Virus record (IMG/VR): IMGVR_UViG_3300033148_006102
Span: 1 to 64,000 of that record
Source: a virus
DNA length: 64,000 bases
Reading direction: 5' to 3' (one strand)
Under the pieces are notes generated by a model, which saw nothing but the letters and a program-made list of their open reading frames with translations, did no database searches and was not told the DNA's origin. A program made the position numbers and the translations under genes. Shown here piece after piece: positions 7,658-64,000 of the stretch (its first letter is position 1; each line of letters begins with the position of its first letter).

Positions 7658-8463
7658 TGGCGAATGCGAATTCCATCGGCGGTAGTCGTCGGCAGCTACT
7701 GCAGCTGGCTGGCCTTCCACGTCGGCGTGACCTTTTCAAAGACAGTATCACGATCACGAACCAAGTGGATCAGATGGTGGCGACATTCTCGTTGTATGAC
7801 GACGAGGATTTGTTAAACCCTATTTTGGAGTTCGATAACATCATTGTCGGAGAGATCCAGATTACCGAGGTTGAGCGGGTTCAGAAGGTGCCTTTATTTC
7901 GCCGACAGAGTCAACTGTATGCATACGGTCGAGATGTGCGCGCTATTTCATTGAATGGCGTGGCTATAGATGCAGAGGATCTACCGGAAGAAGATGGAAC
8001 AGGGACGCGCAACCAAATAACGATGATTGAGCTGGCACATTGGAAATATTTTCGAACACCGAAATTAGCACAACAGAAGCGTACGCTCTTCTTGTCGGTT
8101 GCGGGGATGACGTTCAGCGTTGGAGCGATTGAACTAGGCCGCGGTAGTACTGCAGATGCGCCGACCATTGATGTCGTTCAATGGCGGTTCTTGATTTTGA
8201 ATGATTTGTCGAACTATGAACGACTGCTTTCGGTAGTAAGTTCGACGAACGCGGTTGATCCGCTCAGCACCTTGGACAGAGATGCTGGACTAGCTGCGCG
8301 AAACAGACGACGTACGCAGGGCGGCGGTGGCGTATCTGTGCTGGTAGAGAAAGTAAATGGGCCGCCAGTAGGACGACGTCGCTGGGAACACGCAGTATCG
8401 CAAGAAGGTCTAATAGAAGTGTTGCCGCAATTAGCAGAGGGTACGGAGGATGAGGCAGCGTGA
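7657..8463 (+). CDS. Probable baseplate/tail protein
   Basis: 268 residues. The ATG shares its A with the last base of the upstream TAA, and the 3' end overlaps the next gene by four bases. Strand-rich N-terminal half (DSITITNQVDQMVATFSLYD, FDNIIVGEIQITEVE). A low-complexity arginine/glycine turn near residue 215 precedes a short acidic tail. Similar size and position to its upstream neighbour suggest a matched pair that joins the tail to the hub. Family not recognised. Confidence 0.5.
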   Translation: MANANSIGGSRRQLLQLAGLPRRRDLFKDSITITNQVDQMVATFSLYDDEDLLNPILEFDNIIVGEIQITEVERVQKVPLFRRQSQLYAYGRDVRAISLNGVAIDAEDLPEEDGTGTRNQITMIELAHWKYFRTPKLAQQKRTLFLSVAGMTFSVGAIELGRGSTADAPTIDVVQWRFLILNDLSNYERLLSVVSSTNAVDPLSTLDRDAGLAARNRRRTQGGGGVSVLVEKVNGPPVGRRRWEHAVSQEGLIEVLPQLAEGTEDEAA

Positions 8464-11400
8464 TAGAACAGACTGATCTTGCTCATTATGACGTCGTGGC
8501 ATTCTTTGACGGTATCCAGTTACCGTTGGTGTCAGTGGTTATCAATCAGGCGATGCGGCAGACCACTGCAGAGTTGAACGTTGAGCCAAATGATCTGCTG
8601 GAATTTCTCAAGCCTCGGTCAAGGGTGTCCGTATTTGTTCGTGATCCGCACAAGGATTTGAGCGAGATTCGTGAAGTTGTTGACAACCAGAATGAGTTGC
8701 CACGCAATATTTCACAGGAAGAGCTGTTCAAGCACGCCTTTTACTTGTACTGGGAAGGTGAGTATGCCGGGTTTTCGGAGTCCGAAGAGGCAAGCGTGCG
8801 TACTACGACGCTGCATTGCGTCCCGGTAATGTCGCATTTAGATTCAACTGCGTTACAGATGACGGCCACCGGCAGTTTTGTCAGTTATCCGTTATTGAAT
8901 GGTTCACTTTTCATTGACCCTGTTGTGGATACGTTTGGCCAGGCAGATTACTTGGGCATGATTGCTTCACGTGTGTTTCAGCAAGTGAAGGAAGAGGCCG
9001 AAGAAGACATTGATGGGCCGTTTTTCAATTATGCTCTGCGCTCAGTCTTGTTTCTATCCTATGTAAGCACACGCCACGCTGACCTGTACATGCGTCTGAA
9101 ACGGACGCGGTTCTTTGAGCGTGTGCTTGCGTTACCTGATCGTTTGATGGCCACAGTCTTGCCACGACTTGTGGCGCGTACCGCCTTTGAACAGAACATG
9201 ACCAATATGGTTAGCAGTAACGGTACGGTAGGCGATGCGCTGGACGTGCTGTTAGGCTTTGGGCAGTATTCACGATGTGATATTGTGCCGCACGTGGTAC
9301 GGCCGGTAGACACAACATCATCGGGGACGCTCGCAACGGATGCGGCATTATCGGATAAGGAAGTACCAGCATACAATCGCGAAGGCTACGTGTACGGTAC
9401 AATTGGGTTATTCCCCTCGTTGTACTACGCGTTGCCACCACGATGTAACTGGCTCTTTCCAGATCATATTCAGGAATTACAGTCATCGCGTAATCTTTTG
9501 ACAGAGCCTACGCGGCTGGGTTTGACAGATCCAAATGTGACATCCTTCGGCCTGGATGGCATGATCCATGTAGCTCCGCCAAGTCTGTCTAAGTATTTGC
9601 TTGAAACATACGAAGCGTTGCCAAAGCGTACGGTCGCAGAAAGCCGGTTTAATAGCGCATCCATATCAGCGCAGAACTCACCAGACGTACTGGATAACGA
9701 GGACATAGGTACTCTCAAGTCAACGCCGCTGGTATGGTACACCCGCGATACGCGCGCACAAATACTAGATAGTAGTGACCCAACAGCCGACATCTACAAG
9801 GGCGTACAAGATGGCACGACGCCATCGTTACTTGCCAGCATGCAGCCGATAGAGTTGCTCAAGGGTATCGTGTACAAATCAGAAACAGGAACGTTTGAAT
9901 CACTCGCGGCCGCATTATTGGCAAAAGATGAAACGGCGATTGGCGCGATTAAGAAGGCGTTGGTGACAGGTGATTTCTTTGTTAACACCGGTAAGAAGGA
10001 AAACATCTACTACGTCAACTTCATGCAGCATATCGCGCAGTATCGATTGTTGATGGCACAATTGAGCCGTGGCTTGACGGTATCAGGACCATTTAATCCC
10101 GACCCGCAGGTCGGTCTCCCGATGGTAGTGTTACGTGATTCGCGGGCTTACATTGGGTTGTTGGTGGGCAAGGCCGATAGCATTAATGCAACGGGTGGGG
10201 CGAGTACGGTATACACGCTTGAGCATGTACGGTTAGTGCCGAATCTGGAGGTAAGTGAGTCTTTGATTGACAGCGTGGTCAATCATGAACGAGATGTGCG
10301 TGACGTACGTCGTCGCCTAAATCAAGTCGATAAACAGCTAGAGTTCTTCAGCAAGCAGACGCCGAAAGCGATTGCCACAAAGCATCCGAATTTCTTCTCG
10401 CGTACCATGAATATGGCCAGTAGGAAGGACTCGGATAACAGTAAAATCGGCGGCGCGGCTTACTGGGACAGTCACGGTAGTACCAATTACCCGAAGAACT
10501 ACTTACCACGGTCAACTAGCGGTTTGGAGGCGATTGGTCGTGCAGTTGTGCCAGGACTAACACAGCTTCAGTCATTTCAATTCAATGCGGTTGAACGAGA
10601 TCTGTCGTTTGATGATCTTTTCCAACGTTGGGCAGACGAAGCGGATGGTGTGGAAGTTACTGAGAACGCACAAGCAGCTTTCCGGGAAGCAGTATCAGAG
10701 ATACTGACAGCATCAGTGAACGGCGATGATTCATACGAAGCCGCACAAGATCGTAAAGAACTACGCCGTGCTTTGGACGCAATGGACGCAGCTGAAACGA
10801 TTGTGGATCGTTTACATGATGCAGCGGTAGCGTGGCAGGCGGCGTACGATCAGAATATGCCAGAAGATACGCGACCAAATATCAACGCAGATGATATAGC
10901 TGGAGATCCGTGGTCTGAGCGACGAGAAGGTTTCCTCGAGGCACGGCCGGGATTGGAAACTTTCTATGATATTGATCAGTTTCGATCGCATCCGGTTAAA
11001 CGAGCCTACCCAGAATTATCGACCTTTTCTGTTGATACGCTCCTGGCGTTGTCACAGGATCAAAAGTATGCAATTACTACTGCTGCTTACCGGCCGTGGA
11101 TCTGGTCATCGCGCGTCATGTACAGCATTGCGAACATGATTGTGGCCTATCTGGATAACATTTTGCGGATCTGTGCTGCGCTTTACACGTCGTTGCAGGA
11201 AGCGTTAAATGCAGAGAAAGCAAAAATTGAGCGTCAAGTACCGAAGTTGGCGGAAGATGCCCGGACAGATCAAATATTGAGTCCATCTGTATCCGTGTCC
11301 AACATCATTCCGCCGGTGCTGCCATCGGCACGGCCCGATTATTTGGATCCGCGCACAGCAGATATTTTGTATCGGAAGTACTTTGGTCGGATCGGTAACG

Positions 11401-12026
11401 AAAAGAGCACATATGCCGAGATACTGGGCGACGAACTGCTGCGGATCGGGGACATTTTGAAAGAAGGCGATCCGATTGAGCTGCGTTTGCATGCCGGAGC
11501 CAATCTACTGCGTTTACTGAGCAGAGTACGTGACAACTATTTTGAAAAGCGCGAAAAGAGTGGGGAATCAACAGCAGAGTTTGTCTACAACTTTGTGCAT
11601 CGCGACTACATCTACGGGCGGGACTTGGGTCATGTGTTCCCAGGTATGGGTATCCGGTATTATCCATTTCCACAGCAAGATGAGGAAGATCTAGGCATCC
11701 TAGAAATACGGAAGGAACCGCTGGAAACAGATGATACGACTCAGGACGATAGTGGCGGCGCCTTCTCAGTTATCCCACAAGTGGTGCTGCCGCGATTCAC
11801 GCATACTGAAGAGGACACAACGCTCGAAGTAAGTAAGCAGGACTCTTTGGTGATCAGCCAGACTATTACGAAAGCGCGCTCTGTTTCCGATCGTGGACGG
11901 ATTGAGGAAGCGGAGAGAGAAGCAACAACTCTTGCGAAGATGACCAATGATAGTTATCTTCAGGACATAGCTCGTACAGTCTTCCACGAACAAGCCCGCT
12001 TGCCGGCCATTCGACGAGGTAGGTAA
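8460..12026 (+). CDS. Large baseplate hub-like protein
   Basis: 1188 residues, GTG start overlapping the previous stop. The first ~130 residues show the pattern of the phage gp27/late-control-D hub family: a target-like FDGIQLPLVS strand, a residue run on small strands (AELNVEPND), then VSVFVRD and a YWEGEYAGF strand followed by TTTLHC. Beyond this the protein is much longer than D or gp27 (about 350-400), with long helical segments and several strand-rich parts, so extra domains have been added. Probably the central hub or spike-bearing protein. Assignment is by fold pattern only. Confidence 0.5.
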   Translation: MIEQTDLAHYDVVAFFDGIQLPLVSVVINQAMRQTTAELNVEPNDLLEFLKPRSRVSVFVRDPHKDLSEIREVVDNQNELPRNISQEELFKHAFYLYWEGEYAGFSESEEASVRTTTLHCVPVMSHLDSTALQMTATGSFVSYPLLNGSLFIDPVVDTFGQADYLGMIASRVFQQVKEEAEEDIDGPFFNYALRSVLFLSYVSTRHADLYMRLKRTRFFERVLALPDRLMATVLPRLVARTAFEQNMTNMVSSNGTVGDALDVLLGFGQYSRCDIVPHVVRPVDTTSSGTLATDAALSDKEVPAYNREGYVYGTIGLFPSLYYALPPRCNWLFPDHIQELQSSRNLLTEPTRLGLTDPNVTSFGLDGMIHVAPPSLSKYLLETYEALPKRTVAESRFNSASISAQNSPDVLDNEDIGTLKSTPLVWYTRDTRAQILDSSDPTADIYKGVQDGTTPSLLASMQPIELLKGIVYKSETGTFESLAAALLAKDETAIGAIKKALVTGDFFVNTGKKENIYYVNFMQHIAQYRLLMAQLSRGLTVSGPFNPDPQVGLPMVVLRDSRAYIGLLVGKADSINATGGASTVYTLEHVRLVPNLEVSESLIDSVVNHERDVRDVRRRLNQVDKQLEFFSKQTPKAIATKHPNFFSRTMNMASRKDSDNSKIGGAAYWDSHGSTNYPKNYLPRSTSGLEAIGRAVVPGLTQLQSFQFNAVERDLSFDDLFQRWADEADGVEVTENAQAAFREAVSEILTASVNGDDSYEAAQDRKELRRALDAMDAAETIVDRLHDAAVAWQAAYDQNMPEDTRPNINADDIAGDPWSERREGFLEARPGLETFYDIDQFRSHPVKRAYPELSTFSVDTLLALSQDQKYAITTAAYRPWIWSSRVMYSIANMIVAYLDNILRICAALYTSLQEALNAEKAKIERQVPKLAEDARTDQILSPSVSVSNIIPPVLPSARPDYLDPRTADILYRKYFGRIGNEKSTYAEILGDELLRIGDILKEGDPIELRLHAGANLLRLLSRVRDNYFEKREKSGESTAEFVYNFVHRDYIYGRDLGHVFPGMGIRYYPFPQQDEEDLGILEIRKEPLETDDTTQDDSGGAFSVIPQVVLPRFTHTEEDTTLEVSKQDSLVISQTITKARSVSDRGRIEEAEREATTLAKMTNDSYLQDIARTVFHEQARLPAIRRGR

Positions 12027-12349
12027 TGAAACCAGTAGATATCGCGATCACTGCAATACGGCGTATGACCGAAATCATTTCGAACATCGGTTTCTCATTT
12101 GGTACATCGCCACGAGAGATACTGGTAGTAGGTACTGCTGAAGTCGATGGCAAGGAACGCGGTGTCATAGCCGAGCTTACGGCAGAAGGCCAGGCGCGTG
12201 TATTAGCTATTGCGATACATCCGGATATGAAGGTGGAGAAATTCGAGGTCGAATTCGCACGTATGGACGAAGTCGGTGCCGAAGCCACTGAGCAGATCCA
12301 ACAAGCCATCCAGTCAGAAGAAGGTACCGGAACACCATTTGATGGTTAA
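12026..12349 (+). CDS. Hypothetical small acidic protein
   Basis: 107 residues, start overlapping the previous stop (TAATG). A compact alpha/beta sequence with an acidic glutamine/glutamate-rich tail. No recognised family. Lies between the hub-like gene and the sigma factor. Confidence 0.5.
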   Translation: MKPVDIAITAIRRMTEIISNIGFSFGTSPREILVVGTAEVDGKERGVIAELTAEGQARVLAIAIHPDMKVEKFEVEFARMDEVGAEATEQIQQAIQSEEGTGTPFDG

Positions 12350-12360
12350 ACTGGTACGTG

Positions 12361-13047
12361 ATGAAGAACCTCAGTGACGAGCTTCTGGCGGTTCGTGCGA
12401 AGACCGATAACCAGGCCAAGAACGAACTGGTACGTCGTTTCGCGCCCACAGTGACGACGCGATCGAACATGTACCGTGGTGTAGCGGTTCCCCAGCCGGC
12501 TATCTACGGTGAAGGACTTCGTTTGGTTCAATATGCAGCGGAGACATTCAAACCCACCAAGGGCGCCAAGTTCTCGACTCACCTGGAGAACCATTTACGG
12601 CGGATGTCTCGATACGTAAATACGCATAAGAACATTGCCCGCATCCCACCAAGTAAGCAAATGCGTATGGGGTTGTTCCGGTCACGTGCAGCGGTATTGC
12701 GCTTGCGGTTAAGTCGAGAACCGGCGCCAGAAGAATTGTCGGAGGATCTAGGATGGTCCGTAAAAGACGTAGTGGACCTGATGAACTTGGAGCGGCGTGA
12801 GCTGGCTAGTTCAGATCTCGTCGGGGAAATGGATACTGCGCATTTTGATCGTATGCGGGAGACAGCTGCGTTCGTGCGTTTTGAGTTGCGGCCTGAAGAG
12901 AAGGTCGTGTTTGATTATCTCTACGGATGGCACGGTCGTATGCAAACGGACAATGTACAGCAGATTGCTATGCATTCTGGCGTGAGTACGGATAAGGTGT
13001 ATCGAACCATCCGCAAGATCAAGGATCTGACACAGAGGCATCTATGA
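12361..13047 (+). CDS. Phage RNA polymerase sigma factor (sigma-70 type)
   Basis: About 229 residues. Residues ~50-85 match sigma region 2: YGEGLRLVQYAAETFKP then KGAKFSTHLENHLRR, the counterpart of EG..GL..A...FDP..G..FSTYA..WIR. A region-3-like helical segment follows (APEELSEDLGWSVKDVVDLM). The C-terminus has a region-4 helix-turn-helix pattern (VQQIAMHSGVSTDKVYRTIRKI). It should redirect host RNA polymerase to phage promoters, probably late ones given its place among virion genes. ATG was taken rather than the GTG one codon earlier; neither has a strong ribosome site. Confidence 0.85.
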   Translation: MKNLSDELLAVRAKTDNQAKNELVRRFAPTVTTRSNMYRGVAVPQPAIYGEGLRLVQYAAETFKPTKGAKFSTHLENHLRRMSRYVNTHKNIARIPPSKQMRMGLFRSRAAVLRLRLSREPAPEELSEDLGWSVKDVVDLMNLERRELASSDLVGEMDTAHFDRMRETAAFVRFELRPEEKVVFDYLYGWHGRMQTDNVQQIAMHSGVSTDKVYRTIRKIKDLTQRHL

Positions 13048-13958
13048 TAACGGAAGCACAAGCACGCATGTTGGCGGAAGCCATACTGGATAAACTGGGT
13101 TCACGCTTCAGGCCGCAAGCTGAAGCTACGCAAGGTCCGCGCTCTGTTGTGGCACCTGCGGTTGAGAATCCAGTGCCCCGAGCAGGTAGATCTGGTATTG
13201 GAGCACGTGATGCTGGCGGCGGGACAACTGGTAAGCGCGAGACACAATCAGCGCCAGCGGAAGGATTAACAGCTCTGGCAGCGGAACTATTTGATGCCAA
13301 GTCGACAGGTATGGCAACTGTGCATAGTGGCGGTACCGGTGGATCTACGAAAGGAACAGTATCGCCGTTTGTACGTGATTCGGCTAAGGGCGGCGCGCGT
13401 ATGGGGTTGAACTCCACGCCAGCTTCTGTGCAAGCACCGAAGAAGCCAGGTATCGTTACAGCGGCGTATGTAGGTAGTCAGGTTGGGGAACTAAAAATGC
13501 GGCTGGGTACGAAGCCCAAGAAGCCAGTTGTGATCAAGTCGACCGAGAAGAAGGCCGACATGGGCAAGGAACACGAGCGACGTTATATCCTGAATGCACT
13601 GCCGCCGTCCGCGAAGAAGGGCTCGAAAATCAAACAAGGGATTATGGTAAAGTCCCAGAAAGGATACTCAAGGATTCGCGAACAGGACGGGAAGTACACG
13701 ATGACAGCCAAATACTTCCCGCTGCACCATGAGGCAGAGACAGAGATATCGAAGGAGATCTTCGATACCTTGTGGCCGAAAGTACAAGATCAGCAGATCA
13801 AGACGCGCTACAAGATTTCAACGCCGGATAAGAATGAATGGATTGTCGACGAGTTTGAGGACGGAAAAGTTATTGCAGAAGTGGAAATGCCACGGAAGAA
13901 CGGTAAAGTGTCTATTCCTGATGATTTCGATGTGAAGACGGCATACCCGTATAACTAG
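13044..13958 (+). CDS. CYTH / triphosphate-tunnel domain protein with disordered N-terminus
   Basis: 304 residues, overlapping the sigma gene by four bases. The first ~40 residues are helical and the next ~130 are Gly/Ala/Pro/Lys-rich and likely disordered. Residues ~176-285 follow the CYTH pattern: E176-H-E178-R-R180 opening strand, R210-I-R212, TAKY, E-x-E in HEAETEIS, KTRYKI, WIVDEF and the closing AEVE. Known CYTH enzymes act on nucleotide triphosphates or polyphosphate (adenylate cyclase IV, thiamine triphosphatase, RNA triphosphatase). The usual final Lys of ExExK is Arg here. Substrate unknown; coupling to the sigma factor is notable. Confidence 0.75.
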   Translation: MITEAQARMLAEAILDKLGSRFRPQAEATQGPRSVVAPAVENPVPRAGRSGIGARDAGGGTTGKRETQSAPAEGLTALAAELFDAKSTGMATVHSGGTGGSTKGTVSPFVRDSAKGGARMGLNSTPASVQAPKKPGIVTAAYVGSQVGELKMRLGTKPKKPVVIKSTEKKADMGKEHERRYILNALPPSAKKGSKIKQGIMVKSQKGYSRIREQDGKYTMTAKYFPLHHEAETEISKEIFDTLWPKVQDQQIKTRYKISTPDKNEWIVDEFEDGKVIAEVEMPRKNGKVSIPDDFDVKTAYPYN

Positions 13959-13968
13959 AGAGGGCTTG

Positions 13969-14211
13969 ATGACCGTGGCAAAGAAGGATACTCGGCGCAC
14001 AAAGAAGCGTCGGACTATCCGAATCCCTAAGTGGCTCACCAAGGAAGAAGTAGAGGCACTGCAGGCTGAAATCATACACAATCCGCATTTGACGGATGAA
14101 GAGGCGCTGCAACGTGTGCTGTTTAATACGACACGGTTGGAAGAAATATACGCAGAGCGCATACAACCGGAGTCGGAAGATGAAGACGAAGAAGAGCCAG
14201 AGGACGAATAA
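13969..14211 (+). CDS. Small basic-acidic protein
   Basis: 80 residues with GAGAGGG ahead of the ATG. The N-terminus is strongly basic (KKDTRRTKKRRTIRI), the middle helical, and the C-terminus almost all acidic (ESEDEDEEEPEDE). Such charge-split proteins can bind nucleic acid or act as small assembly partners. The stop overlaps the next ATG. No family recognised. Confidence 0.55.
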   Translation: MTVAKKDTRRTKKRRTIRIPKWLTKEEVEALQAEIIHNPHLTDEEALQRVLFNTTRLEEIYAERIQPESEDEDEEEPEDE

Positions 14212-16139
14212 TGGCTGGACTTCAATCAGGGTTGGTTTGTGGTGACTTGATCAGCTTGGCTATTCAGGCTTACCAAGCACTCAAAACTAATGAGCTCTTA
14301 CGTGAAGAACGGAATGCGATCTCGGCACAAGTGGCCGAGTTTGTGTTCGATTTAAATGCTGCGCTCTCCCCTGATGCCACCACTGATACGCTTGAGGCGA
14401 TAGGCGCAGAGTTCTATCAGCCTATTGTGGAGGTACTCAATGGCTTAGAAGAAGGCATTGCGCAAGCATACGGACAGAGTTTCGCCGAGTCTCTGCAAAC
14501 CGGTGCGATAGATCCGGCGCAGGGCAACGTTGATGCCGTTCAGGCATTCTTCTCTGCATCGTCAAGTACCGTGTTGGGCGATGCTATCACAGACGATCAA
14601 CTTTCTGATCCAGACGCCACATACAGGCCGAGTGCTATTCGTACAACCTTCCGCGAGCCAGCTGAAGAGGTCGAATGTGGTGATAGTGTGGTGCAGGGCG
14701 CATTCGCCAGCGTTGCCTCAGCCGCCACAGGACTCATAAATCGTGGCGCGAATATCGCACAGATCACAACTTCTTCGTTTGGTATGATTTCGCATGCCAT
14801 ACCGAAGGTGCTGTATGGCGCCGCGGCAATGAATGTGGAGCAGATCCTTTCGTTATTTGTGGATCGTGATGTGATTTTGGACAAGATCATACGCGCCGCT
14901 GATCGACTTGCCGAAAGTGTCGGATTCATTGAAGAAGAGCACTACTTCCCCAACTTGTTCTCCCGAGCTGGCAAGACGATTAAGATCCTGCGTCGAGCAG
15001 TGAGCGCGCTTGAGCGTGTTGAGTATTTCATGCTGGAGAATGGGGTCACTGACCTGAACAGCTATGAGCAGGCAATTGAGTACGTGGAAGATGCAGAGGA
15101 AGAACTGTGTAGGCTGGAGCTCTTGCCGGATCCAACTGGCTATACCTACATGATGAAGCTTCAGACACAGATCAATTTCTTGGCTATCCTCAAGCGCGGC
15201 CTTGAGAACAAACAGGACGTTCTATTGGGTTTGCAATCACTGTTGGTTGACTTCCGCGGCGATCTGGGTTCTAACGCACGATTTGATTCGCTATTCATCG
15301 GCTTGGTGACGCAAGTTAAGTGCCGGATTGACAAGCTGATAGGTCGGTTGCGTGCCGCCCAGAAAGCAAATCGGATTGAAACATATATCACACAGCAGGC
15401 GGCCGCGTGTATTGAGCTGCAGGTACTGATTCCGTTCATGGAATTGGTAAAGCAGCCGTTGTCGCAAAAACTGTCATTATTGGATGTAGATCCGATCGGC
15501 GAAGCTGTAGCAGATATCGAAGTTGCGGCAGCCAACCTGGATATTGATTCGCCGGATTACCAGGCATTGATCAATTCAATGGACTTGTTGATTACTCAGG
15601 CACGAGTATCGCTCACCCGTTATCAGGATCCTGCGCAGGTCCAGGCATTGGCGGAACAGGTCAAGAGTCAAGCAGAAGCGATGAAGGGCCAAGGACAGGA
15701 ATTCGAGCAAGCGGTGGCTGTAGCCTTGGTAACGCTCGCAGGGGTACGTGCTGTGTTGGATGCGGTACTTGGCGGCTTTGGTGATGATCCGGCCATTAGC
15801 AGTATTGTCGAGAATATTCGAACAGGTAACTGGGAGAAGCTTTTCAGCATCGATGCAGTCACGTCTTCATTGGAAGGTGAAGTAGCGAAGCTGATGTCGG
15901 CAGCTGTAGCGTGCTGCGAAGCATCTGGCCGGTCGCAGACTTCTCAGGGCGCAATCTTTGATTTGCTCGATATTTCGGAAGAATTAGCAGACGAAGCTCG
16001 CAGAGAGGCGCTATTCCACGATACAACTACAATGTTTGGTAGTAAGTCGCATAAGGCGACTATGAACTTCAGGATACCGCTGCTCAAGCAGCAGCTCGGT
16101 AGAGCCATAAATGCGGCTCGCGCGGACTGTTTCCAGTAG
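14211..16139 (+). CDS. Large helical virion-region protein
   Basis: 642 residues, start overlapping the previous stop. Almost wholly alpha-helical, with several cysteines (VECGDS, ELCRLELL, VKCRID, ACIELQ, VACCEAS). Long amphipathic helices such as LLRAAQKANRIETYITQQAAA suggest coiled coils. No signal peptide or catalytic motif seen. It lies in a chain of overlapping genes with structural character; a virion structural or internal protein is the best guess. Confidence 0.5.
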   Translation: MAGLQSGLVCGDLISLAIQAYQALKTNELLREERNAISAQVAEFVFDLNAALSPDATTDTLEAIGAEFYQPIVEVLNGLEEGIAQAYGQSFAESLQTGAIDPAQGNVDAVQAFFSASSSTVLGDAITDDQLSDPDATYRPSAIRTTFREPAEEVECGDSVVQGAFASVASAATGLINRGANIAQITTSSFGMISHAIPKVLYGAAAMNVEQILSLFVDRDVILDKIIRAADRLAESVGFIEEEHYFPNLFSRAGKTIKILRRAVSALERVEYFMLENGVTDLNSYEQAIEYVEDAEEELCRLELLPDPTGYTYMMKLQTQINFLAILKRGLENKQDVLLGLQSLLVDFRGDLGSNARFDSLFIGLVTQVKCRIDKLIGRLRAAQKANRIETYITQQAAACIELQVLIPFMELVKQPLSQKLSLLDVDPIGEAVADIEVAAANLDIDSPDYQALINSMDLLITQARVSLTRYQDPAQVQALAEQVKSQAEAMKGQGQEFEQAVAVALVTLAGVRAVLDAVLGGFGDDPAISSIVENIRTGNWEKLFSIDAVTSSLEGEVAKLMSAAVACCEASGRSQTSQGAIFDLLDISEELADEARREALFHDTTTMFGSKSHKATMNFRIPLLKQQLGRAINAARADCFQ

Positions 16140-16147
16140 GAGTTCTC

Positions 16148-16327
16148 ATGACACAAGCTGAAGTAGTAGGGAACTGGCTGGCAGATCAGTTCATCAAGCA
16201 GGGCATTTTGACCGAAGAATTAGCGCCATACTTCTTGGCCGGTGTGATTGATAAGACTGCATCGATGGATGTGATCGAGATTGCAGCACAATCACGCGAA
16301 GTGGATGTTAGAGTATCGGACAGCTAA
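16148..16327 (+). CDS. Small hypothetical protein (59 aa)
   Basis: A 59-residue ORF with AGGAG upstream of its ATG (in the TAGGAG of the previous stop). It fills the gap between two genes and overlaps the next one (TAATGG). Begins MTQAEVVGNWLADQF and is helical and acidic. Coupling on both sides and the ribosome site support it as real. No family recognised. Confidence 0.6.
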   Translation: MTQAEVVGNWLADQFIKQGILTEELAPYFLAGVIDKTASMDVIEIAAQSREVDVRVSDS

Positions 16328-16806
16328 TGGAAGATCTGCTACTACTTACACCGGACGCCACCGTGGATGATTCCGAGATTCGGGATCTTCCGGATGGCCT
16401 GGTGCAAGCGCATATCATTCGTAGCGTGTCGCCCAACCACAATACGCACATGACTTTGCTAATTGAGGGCATACAGAAGTTGGTGCAGGAAGTGTGGTTA
16501 GAGATTATCAGTGATCGAACACCGGACGGCAGCGGCTCAGGGATGTCAGCCGCAATGCAGTCAACGGCTGCTAATGCACAGTCAATTACTCAGTTGGCAC
16601 AGCAGTACACGGCAACCGTACAGGCCAATGTCATACGTAATCAAGGATTGCTTGGGCGGATACCAGCGGCAGAACAGCTGCGTTCGCTTCTTGTTCGTGA
16701 TGTTCAGTATGATGAAGTTCTGCGACAGTCAGTAATCAGTCTTGAATTGCAGTCGCGTGCGGGCATGACGGCTGTTATTACATACCAACCACCAAGGCGG
16801 CGTTGA
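16327..16806 (+). CDS. Hypothetical baseplate-region protein
   Basis: 159 residues, ATG overlapping the upstream TAA. Strand-rich ends (VQAHIIRSV, SVISLELQ, MTAVITYQPP) and a helical, glutamine/alanine-rich centre that may trimerise. The C-terminal strand pattern, with L-rich repeats ending in an arginine cluster, is common in tail accessory proteins. No family named with confidence. Confidence 0.45.
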   Translation: MEDLLLLTPDATVDDSEIRDLPDGLVQAHIIRSVSPNHNTHMTLLIEGIQKLVQEVWLEIISDRTPDGSGSGMSAAMQSTAANAQSITQLAQQYTATVQANVIRNQGLLGRIPAAEQLRSLLVRDVQYDEVLRQSVISLELQSRAGMTAVITYQPPRRR

Positions 16807-18047
16807 TGGGTATCAACAGGGAAATGTTTATACAAGGCTTCATGCGGAAGCTCGCCGATATCCAGACTTCACCTGAGAAGGCGAAGGGTTTGGGGCCGTC
16901 ATATGTGTCAACGGGGATGACCAGTGGTGCCAGTCGAATTTCGCCCTTCATGGATGGGCCGGCCGAAGGTAACGACCCGCAAGACGAACAGGATGAAATC
17001 GAAGCTGGTGGCGGTGATGAAGAGCATCGTCAAGATCTTGGGGATATGCAGGAATTCCAACACGCGTTGATGCGTGGTGAGATGCCGCCAGATCCTGAAA
17101 TGGATACGGCGATTGAGGCTATCGGTGTCCGAGATGCTATGCCGTTAGATACGAATGCGGTTCGTGGTGGACGAAATACAACGGATTATCGTCATCATAC
17201 GCCGGCGGAAGTTGCTCGGCTGTTAAGCGAGAAGATTGGACAGGAATACAAGGATCCTAACGTCAGCGCAATTGACGCTTTCTTCAATGAGAGAAAAGCG
17301 CGGAAGACGCAGAACCGCAATCTGTTGAATGGTCAATATAACCACGGTCACACTGGTGAGTATAAAACTGGTGGTGTGCCGAAGGATGAGCAACTAACAC
17401 TTCCGTCCGCGCCGCACTTGACTGGAACTGAAAACGACAAAGAGAGTGAACATTCAGCTGAAGGAGCGATCCAAAAGCTGTACGGGGATCTCGAAGCATA
17501 CTTTGGTCGTACCAAGAAAGCGGAGTTTGATAAGGAAGCACTCAAGGGATTGTTAGGCGCGCTTTCGGGTGGTGTGAAAGCTCTCGGAAGAGCGGGTCGT
17601 ACGGCAACTAGAGCGGCAACAAAGAGTTTCAGGGCGCCGGCTAAGTGGGCGCCGCGGCGTGCTGCACAGACACAGACGGTTAATACAGTGAAGCCTGGGA
17701 CCGGTGGTTTGTTTCATGGACCACAATTTACTACATCGGCGTCAACAGCTGCGCGACAAGCCTACACAAATCAATCTCGTGGCCAGCGTATGCGTGCAGT
17801 ACAACAGCAGCGGGTAGCACAAGGCAAGCGTCGCATGCCGAAGCGACCGCTCATGGGTCTGCAGCCAAAACAACCTGGAATGGGAACAGAGCTCGCCAGG
17901 CTAATGGGAGCGGAACAAGCTATTGGTGCTGGTGAGAATATTATTGGTGGCTTTACTGGGCAACAAGATCAGCAAGGCACCGCGATGGGACAAGGTTTGA
18001 GAGATCTCAACAGGTTCCGTTTTTATGGGAGGGCGTTGGGTAGATGA
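16806..18047 (+). CDS. Structural protein with N-terminal GF motif
   Basis: 413 residues, ATG overlapping the upstream TGA. It opens with REMFIQGFMRKLAD, a short motif shared with at least four other proteins in this window. The next ~150 residues are acidic and probably disordered. A basic, Arg/Gln-rich stretch follows residue 260 (SRGQRMRAVQQQRVAQGKR), suggestive of nucleic acid contact. Likely a virion or assembly protein. It overlaps the next gene by four bases. Confidence 0.5.
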   Translation: MGINREMFIQGFMRKLADIQTSPEKAKGLGPSYVSTGMTSGASRISPFMDGPAEGNDPQDEQDEIEAGGGDEEHRQDLGDMQEFQHALMRGEMPPDPEMDTAIEAIGVRDAMPLDTNAVRGGRNTTDYRHHTPAEVARLLSEKIGQEYKDPNVSAIDAFFNERKARKTQNRNLLNGQYNHGHTGEYKTGGVPKDEQLTLPSAPHLTGTENDKESEHSAEGAIQKLYGDLEAYFGRTKKAEFDKEALKGLLGALSGGVKALGRAGRTATRAATKSFRAPAKWAPRRAAQTQTVNTVKPGTGGLFHGPQFTTSASTAARQAYTNQSRGQRMRAVQQQRVAQGKRRMPKRPLMGLQPKQPGMGTELARLMGAEQAIGAGENIIGGFTGQQDQQGTAMGQGLRDLNRFRFYGRALGR

Positions 18048-47245: not shown

Positions 47246-47785
47246 ATGTACTATAACATCTATTTTGCGAAGGGCTTCATGGACAAGCTTGCGGCGCTTG
47301 CGCCGGACGAGAAGATTGCGTCTGCGGCAATGGCCCAGCTCGAGGAATTCGAAAAGCTCGCAAAGATGACGCCGTTTGGTCGTACAGCATTGACCGCGGG
47401 CCTTGGTGCGTTGGGCGGCATTGGTGGTCTGGGCGGCATCTGGGGCTCAATGGGACCATCTGCTGAAGAATCACAGATCCAACGGCTGCAGAACCAACTT
47501 GGCAATGTGCAGCAGAAGTACCAAGGACTTGAGCAAACTTCTGGTGCGCAGCAGCAGGCTCTTGCGCCATTACTGCAGAACATGTCACACGAAGATTACA
47601 TGAAGTTCATGGCGTCACAGGGTCATAAAGATCCATTTGCCGCGGAGGCAGGCGATGTTCCGGATTGGTTGGAACCTGAACTGACTCGACGTAAACAACA
47701 ATTCATGCAGGCAGGCTTGCATCAGGCGCTGCAACCAACGCCGGCGCCGGTGCCGACAGCGGCACCACCAGTAGCCGGAAAGTAG
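47246..47785 (+). CDS. GF-motif protein B
   Basis: 179 residues, GAGGAGTAGC before the ATG. Begins YYNIYFAKGFMDKLAALAPD, close to its neighbour. A hydrophobic glycine-rich helix (LTAGLGALGGIGGLGGIWG) follows at about residues 50-68, then a coiled coil and a proline-rich tail. Possibly membrane-active or an internal virion protein. Confidence 0.5.
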   Translation: MYYNIYFAKGFMDKLAALAPDEKIASAAMAQLEEFEKLAKMTPFGRTALTAGLGALGGIGGLGGIWGSMGPSAEESQIQRLQNQLGNVQQKYQGLEQTSGAQQQALAPLLQNMSHEDYMKFMASQGHKDPFAAEAGDVPDWLEPELTRRKQQFMQAGLHQALQPTPAPVPTAAPPVAGK

Positions 47786-63203: not shown

Positions 63204-64000
63204 ATGGCGTTCACGTTACTGGCGGACCAGTTCAATCTGCCGGCTGAGGATTTTATCCGGACGATTGTGCAAGAGCGGTTCCCTACGCTTGATGTGCGTA
63301 AGGGTACGGCGCTATATCGTTTGGTGATTAAGCCGGCTGCATTGCTCATTGAGCCGTACAGGCGCATGCAGAATGTCTTGCGGCGTAACCAGACCATTCT
63401 CGCATTCGAAGATATGCTCGAGTACGAGTTGGATCAGTTGATGGCGAACTATTTTATAGATCGCCGCACATCCAGCACAGCCACAGGCATTGTACGTGTA
63501 TACGTTTCGGAAGCTGTGGAATTGGCTATTCCTCTTTCAGCACGTTTCTCAACCAATACAGGCTTGATCTTTCAGCCGTCATCACCTGTTGTAGCTACAG
63601 CGGCTGAACTGTTACTCAATGAATCTGGTGGATATTACTACGCGGATGTGCCAGTAATTGCGGAAGCACCTGGCGCGGATTACGTAATTGAATCAGGGAC
63701 GATTGTTAACTTCGAAGGCGTGAGCGCTGATTTCGTTGACAATCCTTCGGCTACTGCAGGCGGTCAGAACATTGAGTCAAACAGCGAACTTGTGGAGCGC
63801 AGTCGCGGCACGATTGCGACGCGCACACTTACATCCGAGAACGGCATTCGCGCCACGTTGCTCGATAACTTTGATTCGGTAACGGGCGTAGATGTTATCG
63901 GTTATCTGGATGCAGAGATGGAGCGGGATGTCATCCAAGCGGTGACCAGTTTCCGGGAACTGTTCGGCGTCCGGTTTGCGCGAAAAGTCAACGTATGGGT
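63204..64000 (+). CDS. Baseplate J-like protein (5' part)
   Basis: At least 265 residues, open to the window edge, AAGGGG before the ATG. Pattern of the baseplate J / gp6 family: FTLLADQFNLPAEDFIRTIV, LLNESGGYYYADVPVIAEAP, GADYVIESGTIVNFEGVSA and ESNSELVERSRGTI. These proteins form the wedge ring of contractile baseplates (or equivalents), anchoring fibres and sheath. The downstream end, not visible, should carry the trifurcation domain. Confidence 0.75.
   Translation, partial: MAFTLLADQFNLPAEDFIRTIVQERFPTLDVRKGTALYRLVIKPAALLIEPYRRMQNVLRRNQTILAFEDMLEYELDQLMANYFIDRRTSSTATGIVRVYVSEAVELAIPLSARFSTNTGLIFQPSSPVVATAAELLLNESGGYYYADVPVIAEAPGADYVIESGTIVNFEGVSADFVDNPSATAGGQNIESNSELVERSRGTIATRTLTSENGIRATLLDNFDSVTGVDVIGYLDAEMERDVIQAVTSFRELFGVRFARKVNVW

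What the first reader, a model, noticed from the sequence alone, without database searches (positions are those of the whole stretch)
13044..13958. CYTH-type domain fused to a disordered region, coupled to a phage sigma factor
The C-terminal 110 residues keep most CYTH tunnel positions, with Lys of ExExK changed to Arg. Genes of phage virion blocks rarely carry this fold. It could be an RNA 5'-triphosphatase, a nucleotide cyclase or phosphatase, or a ligand-binding variant acting with the sigma factor.
Basis: partly seen in the sequence, partly recalled or inferred. Interest (0 to 1): 0.65.

Follow-up and report, generated by a model that had tools for sequence, protein, structure and literature searches.

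The report
Phage baseplate-operon CYTH triphosphatase fusion
A large virus of bacteria carries, among its tail-building genes, a protein whose end is a shortened version of a well-known triphosphate-cleaving enzyme domain attached to a long floppy tail; the enzyme type is common in large phages, but this attachment and location look peculiar to this one virus.

Summary
ORF 13044-13958 (304 aa) ends in a genuine CYTH / triphosphate-tunnel domain (residues ~173-304), preceded by a short helix and ~140 low-complexity residues. Pfam and PHROGs miss it. The domain matches Nitrosomonas tripolyphosphatase NeuTTM by sequence (E 4e-5) and by predicted fold (pLDDT 88; Foldseek E 1e-8), and scores 69.8 bits against a profile built from other CYTHs (best of 3000 shuffles 10.8). 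All twelve charged positions conserved across 15 relatives are kept. Departures are ExExK->ExExR (seen in another phage), loss of the NeuTTM Tyr28 equivalent, and no C-terminal plug helix. Published signatures argue against a cyclase and for a triphosphatase. CYTH proteins are already known to be scattered across jumbo phages, so the fold is not novel. The neighbouring sigma gene belongs to a baseplate hub-sigma cassette conserved in dozens of large-phage loci, none of which has CYTH there. The CYTH gene is therefore a lineage-specific insertion or replacement in that operon, not a conserved sigma partner. What is unusual is the fusion to a disordered N-terminal half and the location. Best reading: a Mg2+-dependent triphosphatase, possibly tethered, perhaps with altered activity. 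Substrate and role are untested.

The parts
13044..13958 (+). 304-aa ORF: N-terminal helix, disordered linker, C-terminal CYTH domain
   Evidence: ORF; coding frame throughout; start overlaps sigma stop, ATGA
13053..13106 (+). predicted N-terminal helix (residues 4-21)
   Evidence: AF2 pLDDT 80-84 over residues 1-20
13116..13538 (+). Gly/Ala/Pro/Ser/Thr/Lys-rich linker, predicted disordered (residues 25-165)
   Evidence: pLDDT mostly below 50; composition; no match in phages
13560..13955 (+). CYTH / triphosphate tunnel domain (residues 173-304), lacking the C-terminal plug helix
13569..13583 (+). hallmark motif E-H-E-R-R (ExExK with Lys to Arg)
   Evidence: alignments; also EIERR in L052
13560..13562 (+). 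in-frame ATG aligned with the start codon of standalone phage CYTHs, AGAAGG 5 bases upstream; possible internal start or fusion relic
   Evidence: sequence, alignment; inference
12358..13047 (+). sigma-70-family sigma factor (229 aa)
   Evidence: Sigma70_r3 1.7e-7, phrog_351 3.2e-10, Arash gp10 1.4e-21
8460..12026 (+). baseplate hub-like protein (1188 aa)
   Evidence: profile of relatives' hub proteins E 1.6e-22; Arash member carries a phage lysozyme domain
12026..12349 (+). small ORF between hub and sigma (107 aa)
   Evidence: position; no detectable homology
13966..14211 (+). 81-aa Lys/Glu-rich ORF downstream of the CYTH gene
   Evidence: no homologue found
14211..16139 (+). 642-aa virion-block ORF; positional counterpart of the 675-745 aa protein after sigma in L015, L028, L070
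   Evidence: position only; no detectable sequence match
16327..16806 (+). weak gp25-like baseplate protein
   Evidence: hmmsearch E 0.0099, hhalign E 3e-4
63204..64000 (+). start of gp6/J-like baseplate wedge gene (continues to 65198 in the record)
   Evidence: E 2.4e-73; phrog_6 4.6e-25; Baseplate_J 2.7e-9

Best explanation
The protein is a phage CYTH triphosphatase. Shown: an eight-stranded CYTH fold (predicted) and all conserved charged tunnel residues. Inferred: it binds a triphosphate (inorganic tripolyphosphate, an NTP/dNTP, or another triphosphate-ended ligand) with Mg2+ between the acidic and basic walls of the tunnel and hydrolyses the terminal phosphate by two-metal catalysis, as characterised TTMs do. 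The domain was probably acquired as a complete standalone CYTH gene, a common accessory gene in large phages, and joined in frame to a disordered leader in the slot behind the sigma gene of the baseplate operon, so it is presumably made late in infection. The leader may tether the enzyme to another protein or to the virion. Loss of the NeuTTM Tyr28 equivalent, Lys->Arg and the missing plug helix may alter rate or specificity.
For: Sequence and fold match to NeuTTM. Invariant E14, E16, R48, R50, K61, E68, E70, K91, R93, D107, E117, E119 (domain numbering) across 15 phage and bacterial members. Triphosphatase signature (xRxR and ExE intact, no HF) by the rules in PMC8233210. ExExR also occurs in L052. 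Standalone phage CYTHs begin exactly where the domain's internal Met lies. CYTH is a common accessory gene in large phages and occurs elsewhere in the genomes of two phages with a related sigma (D69, G003). No CYTH in the hub/sigma block of any other fetched phage.
Against: No activity data. Tyr28, half of the catalytic dyad suggested for NeuTTM with Lys52 (PMC3440374), is Ile here. The hallmark Lys is Arg. The C-terminal plug helix is absent. Together these could mean weak catalysis or ligand binding only. No close relative was found to test selection on the residues. Tethering is not shown.
Confidence: 0.62

Rival explanations
1. A catalytically weak or dead CYTH domain used to bind a triphosphate ligand (nucleotide, polyphosphate or 5'-ppp RNA), acting as a sensor, scaffold or virion-protein module.
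For: Tyr28 equivalent lost, ExExR, no plug helix; fusion to a disordered leader inside the baseplate operon.
Against: All acidic metal ligands and basic phosphate ligands are intact, unusual for a dead enzyme; Lys->Arg is conservative and found in another phage member.
Confidence: 0.27
2. Class IV adenylate/nucleotide cyclase.
For: Member of the same superfamily; many CYTHs are annotated as cyclases.
Against: No HFxxxxExExK; the first Arg of xRxR and the second Glu of ExE are present, both lost in cyclases (PMC8233210); closest structure is NeuTTM, which has no significant cyclase activity.
Confidence: 0.03
3. RNA 5'-triphosphatase working with the phage sigma factor on phage or host transcripts.
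For: The gene starts within the sigma stop codon; TTM folds include RNA triphosphatases; some phage CYTH genes lie near RNA ligase or an RNA pyrophosphohydrolase.
Against: The sigma gene keeps its place in dozens of phage loci without CYTH, so they are not an evolved pair; the closest characterised enzyme prefers inorganic PPPi.
Confidence: 0.08

Closest known systems
NeuTTM (NE1496, PDB 2FBL/3TYP), inorganic tripolyphosphatase of the CYTH family
   Same: Best sequence and fold match; same strand order; same acidic and basic tunnel residues; short CYTH form
   Different: Lys8 -> Arg, Tyr28 -> Ile; no C-terminal helix; 172-residue N-terminal extension
Standalone CYTH proteins of huge/jumbo phages (LR756511; IMG/VR loci L003-L008; Phosso; Milchi; annotated 'inorganic triphosphatase' in Brevundimonas, Xanthomonas and Aeromonas phages)
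   Same: CYTH domain with the same tunnel residues, about 30% identity
   Different: They are standalone proteins of roughly 155-204 aa with a longer C-terminus and, where looked at, not in a baseplate operon; the window protein is fused
Larger phage proteins with a CYTH-like region (Ralstonia phages RSF1, 307 aa, and RSL2, 507 aa; ctijX18, 857 aa) in BFVD
   Same: CYTH-like fold as part of a longer phage protein
   Different: Their other regions and genomic setting could not be examined here
Hub-sigma virion cassette of Salmonella phage Arash / Vibrio phage D69 and relatives
   Same: Same hub homologue and sigma gene order
   Different: The slot after sigma holds an unrelated ~120-136 aa protein (or directly a ~489-745 aa protein), never CYTH

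Membership tests
CYTH / triphosphate tunnel metalloenzyme superfamily | Eight-stranded beta tunnel fold | tested here: met
   AF2 pLDDT 88 with eight main strands; Foldseek PDB hits all CYTH/TTM to rank 28
CYTH / triphosphate tunnel metalloenzyme superfamily | ExExK hallmark motif | tested here: inconclusive
   E-x-E kept, Lys is Arg; the same change in phage CYTH L052
CYTH / triphosphate tunnel metalloenzyme superfamily | Acidic and basic residues lining the tunnel | tested here: met
   All twelve conserved charged columns kept; side-chain placement in the model not measured
CYTH / triphosphate tunnel metalloenzyme superfamily | Passes Pfam PF01928 cut-off (a library criterion, not a structural one) | tested here: not met
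   No Pfam hit; only 6 of 15 members of the same alignment hit it while a NeuTTM fragment does, so this reflects model sensitivity to divergent phage forms
Class IV adenylate cyclase (CyaB) | HFxxxxExExK, loss of first Arg in xRxR, Ala in place of second Glu of ExE | tested here: not met
   KADMGKEHERR, SRIR, AEVEM (rules)
Thiamine triphosphatase | W/YxRxR motif | tested here: inconclusive
   YSRIR fits the W/Y pattern and is unique among the aligned phage members, but overall similarity is to NeuTTM
Inorganic triphosphatase (NeuTTM-like) | Tyr28/Lys52 dyad and PPPase activity | tested here: inconclusive
   Lys kept, Tyr28 is Ile; activity not testable here

The most novel reading that the evidence does not exclude
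A virion-associated triphosphatase: the N-terminal helix and disordered leader anchor the CYTH domain to the baseplate or package it for injection, so the phage carries a triphosphate-cleaving enzyme in its particle.
Probability: 0.1. Interest if true: 0.65.

Novelty: new variant of a known kind. Interest (0 to 1): 0.32.

Why it matters
It extends phage CYTH proteins to a disordered-leader fusion in a baseplate operon that family libraries miss, and makes it testable whether such enzymes are tethered to or carried in virions. It also shows that the nearby sigma factor belongs to a widespread hub-sigma cassette rather than being a partner of the CYTH protein.

Tried and rejected
Sigma-CYTH functional pair: rejected as a conserved pair, since the sigma-hub block occurs without CYTH in all other fetched loci. 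Homology of the CYTH ORF to the protein in the same slot of relatives (Arash gp11 etc.): none (hhalign probability 0.2). Close relatives in IMG/VR by the CYTH domain, sigma or hub alone: none. N-terminal half against phages: no match. Full-length single-sequence fold: poor, pLDDT 41, so the domain was refolded with an alignment. RSF1 and RSL2 records by remembered accession: not held. A hand-typed, roughly reversed control against PDB gave nothing but was not an exact reversal; one search is the proper control. An NCBIfam scan failed on a bad coordinate and was not repeated.

Full report
What is there. The window is bases 1-64000 of a 195,108-bp IMG/VR virus record. ORF 13044-13958 encodes 304 aa; its ATG overlaps the TGA of the sigma gene (ATGA). 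Codon statistics fit frame +1 along the ORF, including the Gly/Ala/Pro-rich part. A single-sequence AlphaFold2 run gave a confident helix for residues 4-21 and low confidence for most of the rest.

Is it a CYTH domain? Pfam and PHROGs give nothing convincing. phmmer against PDB gives only NeuTTM, 3TYP (3.7e-5) and 2FBL (6.2e-5). The only phage record found is a 595-kb uncultured phage, LR756511, with a standalone CYTH reading ENEKKF. Aligning it with the window (A1) raised the NeuTTM match to 4.9e-12 and fetched huge-phage CYTHs (more with the larger alignment). A profile built without the window scores the domain at 69.8 bits, against 10.8 for the best of 3000 shuffles and 10.2 for the exact reversal. 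With a 15-member alignment AlphaFold2 gives pLDDT 88.2 and pTM 0.77, with eight main strands and one helix. Foldseek finds NeuTTM first (E 1.4e-8, TM 0.68), then only CYTH/TTM structures down to rank 28.

Tunnel residues. In domain numbering (add 162 for the ORF), E14, E16, R48, R50, K61, E68, E70, K91, R93, D107, E117 and E119 are invariant in all 15 members. The hallmark ExExK is EHERR; another phage CYTH, L052, also has EIERR. Tyr28 of NeuTTM, proposed as a catalytic partner of Lys52 (PMC3440374), is Ile38 here, while the Lys52 equivalent (K61) is kept. The protein stops about where the last strand ends, without the C-terminal stretch (plug helix) of other members. By the sequence rules of PMC8233210 it lacks the three marks of class IV cyclases and has those of triphosphatases. 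It also has Tyr at the W/YxRxR position that marks thiamine triphosphatases, alone among the aligned members.

Context. The sigma gene is homologous to Arash gp10 and D69 gp11 (1.4e-21, 1.3e-19). The 1188-aa protein upstream matches the hub proteins that precede sigma in those phages (1.6e-22); the Arash member holds a phage lysozyme domain. A gp6/J-like baseplate gene lies at 63204-65198 and a weak gp25-like gene at 16327-16806. Hub and sigma lie close together in most of the fetched loci from large phages, but no other fetched locus has CYTH there. In Arash-like relatives the slot after sigma holds an unrelated ~120-136 aa protein; in L015, L028, L070 and L071 sigma is followed directly by a 489-745 aa protein. 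Two phages with a related sigma, D69 and G003, carry a standalone CYTH elsewhere in their genomes. So the CYTH gene is most simply an accessory gene inserted into, or replacing another in, the baseplate operon of this lineage. The domain's internal Met173 aligns with the start codon of standalone CYTHs, consistent with fusion of a whole gene or an internal start; this is inference.

What is known. [quoted passage not shown] One CYTH query finds 67 phage records, several annotated as inorganic triphosphatase. In a huge-phage lineage the gene sits next to terminase, a ferritin-like gene and, in L002, the portal, so CYTH near virion genes has precedent. BFVD holds longer phage proteins with a CYTH-like part.

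Mechanism and verdict. Shown by computation: fold, residues, gene order. Inferred: two-metal hydrolysis of a triphosphate as in NeuTTM/SaTTM, late expression from the baseplate operon, possible tethering by the leader. Activity, substrate and virion presence are untested. The finding is real, a new variant of a known phage protein kind, of modest interest.

Noticed in passing
window 8460-13047; loci L009, L010, L015-L038, L069-L099: A sigma-factor gene linked to the baseplate hub gene is conserved across dozens of loci from large (mostly 100-210 kb) phage contigs; its reason is unexplained.
   Followed up: partly
loci L072-L087, ORFs between hub and sigma (e.g. L072:8043-8468, L077:7675-7944): Unrelated small proteins share an N-terminal motif like FxDELxKIA (strict pattern in 12 of 310 plus-strand ORFs in the first 30 aa, against 1-2 further in and 0 of 375 on the minus strand). 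Similar starts in the window: 16803-18047 (FIQGFMRKLA) and 47246-47785 (FAKGFMDKLA).
   Followed up: partly
G000:C1:148905-149681 (outside the window; L059:7905-8681): A second sigma factor (phrog_351 3.7e-29; Sigma70 r2 and r4).
   Followed up: no
L002:1568-4141 (-): T4-like portal gene of huge phage LR756511 carries an intein-like insertion (Intein_splicing 3.7e-8, just under the Pfam cut-off).
   Followed up: no
L003-L008: Huge-phage cassette of terminase, ferritin-like gene and CYTH conserved across several contigs.
   Followed up: partly
window 63204-64000: The gp6/J-like baseplate gene lies about 50 kb from sigma here, whereas in many relatives it lies within a few kb of sigma.
   Followed up: no
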